Positions 52,873 to 57,401 of a stretch of DNA of 64,000 nucleotides are shown in pieces. Every line of letters starts with the position of its first letter. Within the stretch, counting starts at the first letter, position 1. Under the pieces are notes generated by a model. The model was not told the DNA's origin and did no database searches. It was given only the letters and a program-made list of their open reading frames with translations. The stretch lies in contig JBBDQU010000074.1 of the NCBI GenBank assembly GCA_040905865.1, positions 62,001-126,000 of the forward strand. The letters run 5' to 3'. Source of the DNA: Alphaproteobacteria bacterium (GTDB lineage: Bacteria; Pseudomonadota; Alphaproteobacteria; UBA8366; GCA-2717185). Both the position numbers and the translations under genes were made by a program.

Positions 52873-52997
52873 TGCAGAGGCTTCCGTAGTTAAACCCAAT
52901 GCGTAATGGTAACATTTATGGCCTTACTGATACAAGTAGGCACCGTACTTATATCTTTTGCCTTGACCCTAAGCATAAAAGTTCACATAATAGGGGC

Positions 52998-53870
52998 ATG
53001 AACAAATTGCCCCTCGCAAAGCGCGTCCAAATCCTCAACATGCTGGTTGAGGGTTCCTCCATGCGGTCCATCAGCCGGGTTGTCGATGTTTCGATAAACA
53101 CGGTCAGCAAGGCGCTTGTTGACGCGGGCGCGACCTGTTCCGCCCTTCACGATGTCCATGTCCGCGACGTGAAGGCCAAGCGCGTGCAGTGCGATGAAAT
53201 CTGGTCGTTCACCTACGCGAAGCAGAAGAACGTCGCGACGGCGAAAGCCGCGCCGGAACAGGCTGGCGATACTTGGACCTGGACGGCGCTGGATGCCGAT
53301 AGCAAGCTGATCGTTGCCTATCTCGTTGGCGGGCGCGATGCAGAATACGCAAACGCCTTCATGGATGACGTTGCGTCCCGGCTCGCCAGCCGCGTCCAGA
53401 TGACGACAGACGGGCACAAGGCGTATCTGGAGGCCATTGAGGGCGCATTCGGTGCCGACATTGATTACGCGCAGTTAATCAAGATGTACGGCAATGCGCC
53501 GGAGTCCTTTAAAGGCCGCTACAGCCCCGCCGATTGCACCGGCATTCGCAAACGGGCCGTCGAAGGCAATCCCGAAGAAAAGCACGTCAGCACGTCATAT
53601 GTAGAGCGTCAGAACCTGACGATGCGTATGAGCATGCGCCGGTTCACGCGACTGACGAACGCGTTCTCGAAAAAATTTGAGAACCATATGCACATGGTTG
53701 CGTTGTATACGGTGTGGTACAATTTCATCCGCATCCACAAGACGCTGAAAGTCACCCCTGCCATGCAGGCTGGCATCACGGATCACCTTTGGTCGTGGGA
53801 AGACGTGATTTCGGAAATGGACGCAGGGGCTCCGAAGCCGGGTCCACGAGGCCCGTATAAAAAACGATGA
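52998..53870 (+). CDS. IS1-family-like DDE transposase
   Basis: From the ATG at 52998 the protein has 290 residues. A helix-turn-helix (about 20-43, SMRSISRVVDVSINTVSKAL) precedes the catalytic core with Asp66 (CDEIWSF), Asp138 (TTDGHKAY) and Glu203 (YVERQNLTMR); the last motif is characteristic of IS1-type enzymes. The C-terminus is basic (PRGPYKKR). Unlike classical IS1 no frameshift is needed. An upstream in-frame start at 52899 is not supported by a ribosome site. Confidence 0.9.
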   Translation: MNKLPLAKRVQILNMLVEGSSMRSISRVVDVSINTVSKALVDAGATCSALHDVHVRDVKAKRVQCDEIWSFTYAKQKNVATAKAAPEQAGDTWTWTALDADSKLIVAYLVGGRDAEYANAFMDDVASRLASRVQMTTDGHKAYLEAIEGAFGADIDYAQLIKMYGNAPESFKGRYSPADCTGIRKRAVEGNPEEKHVSTSYVERQNLTMRMSMRRFTRLTNAFSKKFENHMHMVALYTVWYNFIRIHKTLKVTPAMQAGITDHLWSWEDVISEMDAGAPKPGPRGPYKKR

Positions 53871-56996: not shown

Positions 56997-57182
56997 CCGT
57001 TCCTCCCGCTGCGCGATTTTCGGTTGCACTGCTGTACAGCAGATGGTTTCGTACGTGCAACCGAATAGCGAATGACGGGCGCACGGACCATCGCCGGAAC
57101 GAAGCGGCGAGAATTTCATGTGATGCGACAGAGGCGAGCGTTCGCGACACAATGCCGGAACCGGGACAACAGGAGCCAGCTC

Positions 57183-57401
57183 ATGAAGGTCACAATCGAA
57201 TACTGCGCCGTTTGAAACTACGAACCCAGGGCCCTCCGTGCGAGGGAATTGATTCTGTCGGTGCGCGACGCCGAAATCGCACTGGTTCCCGGTCGAAGCG
57301 GCATATTCGACATCAGAATTGACGGTGAACCGGTCTATTCCAAAAAACTGACCGGCCGTTTTCCAACCGACGACGAAATCAAGTCGATATTCTCACTATA
57401 G
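57183..57401 (+). CDS. SelW-like selenoprotein with in-frame TGA (Sec)
   Basis: Reading from the ATG at 57183 with TGA at 57213-57215 as selenocysteine gives a 72-residue protein ending at TAG 57399-57401. Residues 8-11 are Cys-Ala-Val-Sec (CxxU), in the context IEYCAVUNY, followed by a helix (RALRARELILSV). The C-terminal half has GIFDIRIDGEPVYSKK and LTGRFPTDDEI. This matches the Rdx/SelW thioredoxin-fold family over nearly its whole length, both before and after the TGA. AGGAG lies 7 bases before the ATG. A hairpin at 57232-57246 suits a bacterial SECIS. Function is probably a thiol/selenol redox reaction. If read as a stop, only 10 residues are made. Confidence 0.88.
57232..57246 (+). promoter_or_regulatory. 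Candidate bacterial SECIS hairpin
   Basis: CCCTC-CGTGC-GAGGG forms a 5-bp stem starting 17 bases after the UGA, with a 5-base loop containing G-U. Position and loop fit bacterial SECIS elements that bind SelB. The stem is short, so folding should be tested. Confidence 0.55.

What the first reader, a model, noticed from the sequence alone, without database searches (positions are those of the whole stretch)
57183..57401. Hidden SelW-like selenoprotein gene read through an in-frame TGA
A 72-codon frame interrupted only by TGA at 57213 encodes a protein with a CxxU motif and clear Rdx/SelW family sequence on both sides of the TGA. A Shine-Dalgarno precedes it and a hairpin lies 17 bases after the UGA. 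Standard gene callers would report nothing or a truncated fragment. It implies that the organism has SelA/SelB/SelC/SelD.
Basis: partly seen in the sequence, partly recalled or inferred. Interest (0 to 1): 0.88.

Follow-up and report, generated by a model that had tools for sequence, protein, structure and literature searches.

The report
Bacterial SelW-like selenoprotein gene
This is a real gene for a small redox protein in which a stop-like UGA codon is most probably read as the amino acid selenocysteine; it is a new copy of a selenoprotein family known in bacteria since 2005, so it is genuine but ordinary.

Summary
At 57183-57401 an ATG frame behind an AGGAG motif runs to TAG with one interruption, TGA at 57213-57215; read through, it gives a 72-aa Rdx/SelW protein (Pfam 68.6 bits, cut-off 22.6) with the TGA at the second position of CxxU. 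The "implied" machinery is present in the same genome: selA next to selB, a tRNA-Sec with anticodon TCA, and selD. Of 102 aligned sequences 97 have TGA at exactly this codon and 5 have TGC. Among 98 related genomes the TGA form goes with SelB (16 of 18, Fisher p 3e-11), and the four genomes with a Cys form lack SelB. Sequence after the TGA is under purifying selection (dN/dS about 0.2-0.4). The hairpin 57232-57246, loop CGUGC 21 nt after the UGA, covaries across relatives (94.7% paired versus 61% after synonymous recoding) and meets the published bacterial SECIS constraints. AlphaFold gives a confident SelW fold. SelW-like CxxU selenoproteins have been catalogued in bacteria since 2005 and were the most abundant family in ocean metagenomes, so this is a new member of a known kind. 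In passing, three further in-frame-TGA genes of the PrdB/GrdB kind were found in this genome. Sec insertion itself was not measured.

The parts
57171..57175 (+). Shine-Dalgarno-like AGGAG, 7 nt before the ATG
   Evidence: read from the sequence
57183..57401 (+). SelW-like selenoprotein gene, 72 aa with U at residue 11 (CAVU), stop TAG 57399-57401
   Evidence: fold
57213..57215 (+). in-frame TGA, predicted selenocysteine codon
   Evidence: 97 of 102 aligned sequences have TGA here, 5 have TGC
57232..57246 (+). bacterial SECIS hairpin core CCCUC[CGUGC]GAGGG; loop starts 21 nt after the UGA, G at loop position 2
   Evidence: covariation and control by synonymous recoding; constraints from PMC13188914

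Best explanation
A chromosomal gene of an alphaproteobacterium (nearest named records are Alphaproteobacteria/Rhodospirillaceae assemblies) encodes a SelW-like (Rdx family) selenoprotein. SelB carrying Sec-tRNA(Sec) binds the hairpin just downstream of the UGA and inserts selenocysteine at position 11 (shown: gene, hairpin conservation and machinery genes; inferred: the insertion). The product is a compact thioredoxin-like protein with Cys8 and Sec11 at the end of strand 1, and most likely acts as a thiol/selenol oxidoreductase through a Cys-Sec selenenylsulfide (inferred from fold and motif). Its physiological substrate is, to my knowledge, not established for bacterial SelW.
For: Family match across the TGA. 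Complete Sec machinery: selA-selB, SelB 461 bits, tRNA-Sec TCA, SelD 300 bits. TGA in 97 and TGC in 5 of 102 sequences, never another residue. TGA-SelW with SelB in 16 of 18 genomes, SelB in 7 of the other 80, p 3e-11; the 2 exceptions are incomplete assemblies (88% and 77%); none of 4 Cys-SelW genomes has SelB. dN/dS about 0.2-0.4 after the TGA. Five-pair stem 94.7% paired with 57 double changes, versus 38-63% when slid and 61% after recoding; full stem in 63 of 86 versus about 3 expected; AGG/AGA used for 59 of 61 Arg codons in the 3' arm, versus 12% AGR in neighbouring genes. AlphaFold pLDDT 96.6, best matches 2FA8, 2OJL and other SelW-related structures, TM 0.79-0.89. TGA is an ordinary stop of neighbouring genes and of selA and selB, so reading is context-dependent.
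Against: No direct evidence of selenium incorporation or expression. The window's own hairpin is not unusually stable. The relatives used in the covariation count and the genomes in the co-occurrence test are related to each other, so the counts are not independent events and the p-value is too small.
Confidence: 0.97

Rival explanations
1. Pseudogene: a Cys-type Rdx gene with a TGC/TGT to TGA mutation, no longer made.
For: A TGA interrupts the frame.
Against: Same TGA in 97 of 102 sequences, purifying selection after it, covarying hairpin, Sec machinery present.
Confidence: 0.01
2. Sequencing error for TGC or TGT.
For: Only one assembly of this genome was seen.
Against: Relatives in the same genus and family, assembled separately, have TGA at the codon.
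Confidence: 0.01
3. Read-through with another amino acid (changed genetic code, or suppression by a near-cognate tRNA).
For: A frame open across TGA alone cannot tell the amino acid.
Against: TGA terminates neighbouring genes and selA and selB; a tRNA-Sec with anticodon TCA is present; the only other residue in relatives is Cys.
Confidence: 0.01

Closest known systems
Bacterial SelW-like selenoprotein (PMC1088965, PMC1794560, PMC2398784; listed as SELENOW-like, PF10262, CxxU in PMC13188914)
   Same: Rdx domain, CxxU, bacterial SECIS right after the UGA, Sec machinery in the genome
   Different: No difference in kind. The 2006 survey found FdhA as the only selenoprotein in the Alphaproteobacteria then sequenced (PMC1794560); here the SelW-like gene is one of at least four candidates and no TGA was seen in the formate dehydrogenase matches.
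SelW-related proteins of known structure (2FA8 Atu0228, 2OJL, 2OKA, 2OBK, 2P0G, 3DEX)
   Same: same fold, TM 0.79-0.89, 27-35% identity
   Different: Longer chains, 103-108 aa; their residue at the Sec position was not checked here.
Mouse SelW (2NPB)
   Same: same family and fold, TM 0.69
   Different: 21% identity; the eukaryotic SECIS lies in the 3' UTR (general knowledge)

Membership tests
SelW-like (Rdx) selenoprotein | Rdx domain on both sides of the UGA | tested here: met
   PF10262 68.6 bits over 2-69; TIGR02174 53.7 bits, cut-off 34.2
SelW-like (Rdx) selenoprotein | CxxU motif with UGA at the position of Cys in homologues | tested here: met
   97 TGA, 5 TGC in 102
SelW-like (Rdx) selenoprotein | bacterial SECIS: small apical loop 16-37 nt after UGA with G in its first two positions | tested here: met
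   loop CGUGC 21 nt after UGA, G second; covariation; constraints
SelW-like (Rdx) selenoprotein | selA, selB, selC, selD in the genome | tested here: met
SelW-like (Rdx) selenoprotein | thioredoxin-like SelW fold | tested here: met
SelW-like (Rdx) selenoprotein | selenocysteine in the protein | not testable with these tools
   needs 75Se labelling or mass spectrometry
NF041051 SelTWH_Campy equivalog | score over the curated cut-off | tested here: not met
   76.4 bits, cut-off 88

The most novel reading that the evidence does not exclude
In this lineage unrelated selenoprotein genes (SelW-like and three PrdB-like) share one SECIS loop, C[CGUGN]G, so a lineage-specific SelB recognition rule could be used to find the whole selenoproteome.
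Probability: 0.35. Interest if true: 0.35.

Novelty: new member of a known kind. Interest (0 to 1): 0.25.

Why it matters
It is a gene that standard callers cut or miss, and together with the machinery it indicates that this genome uses selenocysteine. It adds a clear alphaproteobacterial case to a family whose role in bacteria is still unclear. It changes no concept.

Tried and rejected
Folding energy of the window's hairpin was uninformative. A first regex search for homologues missed nearly all and was replaced by tblastn with TGA read as Cys. Formate dehydrogenase alpha and CMD/AhpD-like genes in the genome showed no in-frame TGA within the matched stretches. The second tRNA-Sec match over the cut-off is a tRNA-Ser. 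Neighbouring genes (alpha/beta hydrolase, methyltransferase, luciferase-like, DUF924) are partly conserved beside the gene in close relatives only and give no functional hint.

Full report
Observation. The frame at 57183-57401 starts with ATG behind AGGAG (57171-57175), has one in-frame stop, TGA at 57213-57215, and ends in TAG at 57399-57401. Read through, the protein is MKVTIEYCAVUNYEPRALRARELILSVRDAEIALVPGRSGIFDIRIDGEPVYSKKLTGRFPTDDEIKSIFSL. It matches Pfam Rdx (PF10262) with 68.6 bits over residues 2-69, and TIGR02174 (CXXU_selWTH) above its cut-off. It is the only Rdx match in the genome.

Machinery. The same genome (4.37 Mb, 85 contigs, listed as 100% complete) has selA directly upstream of selB with overlapping ends (selA was recognised from its translation and position, not scored against a family model), SelB at 461 bits, a tRNA-Sec with anticodon TCA and SelD at 300 bits. 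TGA is the normal stop of several neighbouring genes and of selA and selB, so the genetic code is not simply changed.

Relatives. From one scan of genome contigs and 98 related genomes, 102 sequences (window included) were aligned over codon 11: 97 have TGA and 5 TGC. They come from Alphaproteobacteria and, by the record titles, Desulfobacterota, Gemmatimonadota, Planctomycetota, Myxococcota and Krumholzibacteriota. Some loci from the two searches are the same sequences, so the number of independent genomes is lower; 86 distinct TGA sequences remained after removing identical stretches. In the 98 genomes the TGA form occurs with SelB in 16 of 18 cases; the two exceptions are incomplete assemblies. 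SelB occurs in 7 of the 80 genomes without the TGA form. None of the 4 genomes with a Cys form has SelB. The Fisher p-value of 3e-11 ignores relatedness.

Selection and SECIS. Comparison with eight relatives gives dS 1.0-1.5 and dN 0.23-0.47 for the stretch after the TGA, so that stretch is constrained as protein. The window's hairpin CCCUC[CGUGC]GAGGG (57232-57246) is not unusually stable by energy. Across 86 sequences, however, its five pairs are 94.7% canonical with 57 double changes. Slid registers give 38-63% and at most 26 double changes. Synonymous recoding with local codon usage gives 61% (largest of 500: 65%). The full stem is kept in 63 of 86, against about 3 expected. The Arg codon in the 3' arm is AGG or AGA in 59 of 61 sequences, while AGR makes up 12% of Arg codons in the window's neighbouring genes. 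This points to RNA-level selection on a coding stretch. The loop lies 21 nt after the UGA with G at its second position, within the published constraints (PMC13188914).

Fold and function. AlphaFold2 gives pLDDT 96.6. The best PDB matches are SelW-related proteins 2FA8, 2OJL, 2OBK, 2OKA, 3DEX and 2P0G, followed by mouse SelW 2NPB, then thioredoxins. A thiol/selenol oxidoreductase role is the natural inference; PMC1088965 says the function is unclear but that CxxU suggests a redox role and that the protein was found to interact with glutathione.

Known or new. SelW-like selenoproteins were the most abundant family in the Sargasso Sea set (48 genes, PMC1088965) and in the Global Ocean Sampling set (427 genes, PMC2398784), and the family is listed in the 2026 review PMC13188914. 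This is a new member of a known kind.

In passing. Three genes of the GrdB/PrdB kind in the same genome continue upstream across an in-frame TGA in a UxxC motif (L130, L131, L132), with hairpins whose five-base loop is CGUGA, close to the CGUGC loop here. They score below the PrdB equivalog cut-off, so the substrate is open.

Noticed in passing
L130 TGA at 1930 (+), L131 TGA at 1939 (+), L132 TGA at 1960 counted on its - strand (own genome, contigs C10, C5, C36): Three PrdB/GrdB-like genes with in-frame TGA in a UxxC motif (VUPNC, TUPVC, VUPVC), each followed by a hairpin with loop CGUGA; probable further selenoproteins, 103-123 bits to TIGR04483 when read through (cut-off 300).
   Followed up: partly
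window 57237-57241 and L130-L132: SelW-like and PrdB-like SECIS candidates of this genome share the loop CGUG(C/A) closed by C-G, while SelW relatives in other phyla have loops such as GGUCU: possible lineage-specific SelB recognition.
   Followed up: partly
own genome, L122 (C84:33239-35290): The formate dehydrogenase alpha gene over the family cut-off has no in-frame TGA in the matched stretch, so the Sec machinery here does not seem to serve it.
   Followed up: partly
window 52899-53870: Open frame that looks like an IS1-type transposase (by eye, not searched).
   Followed up: no
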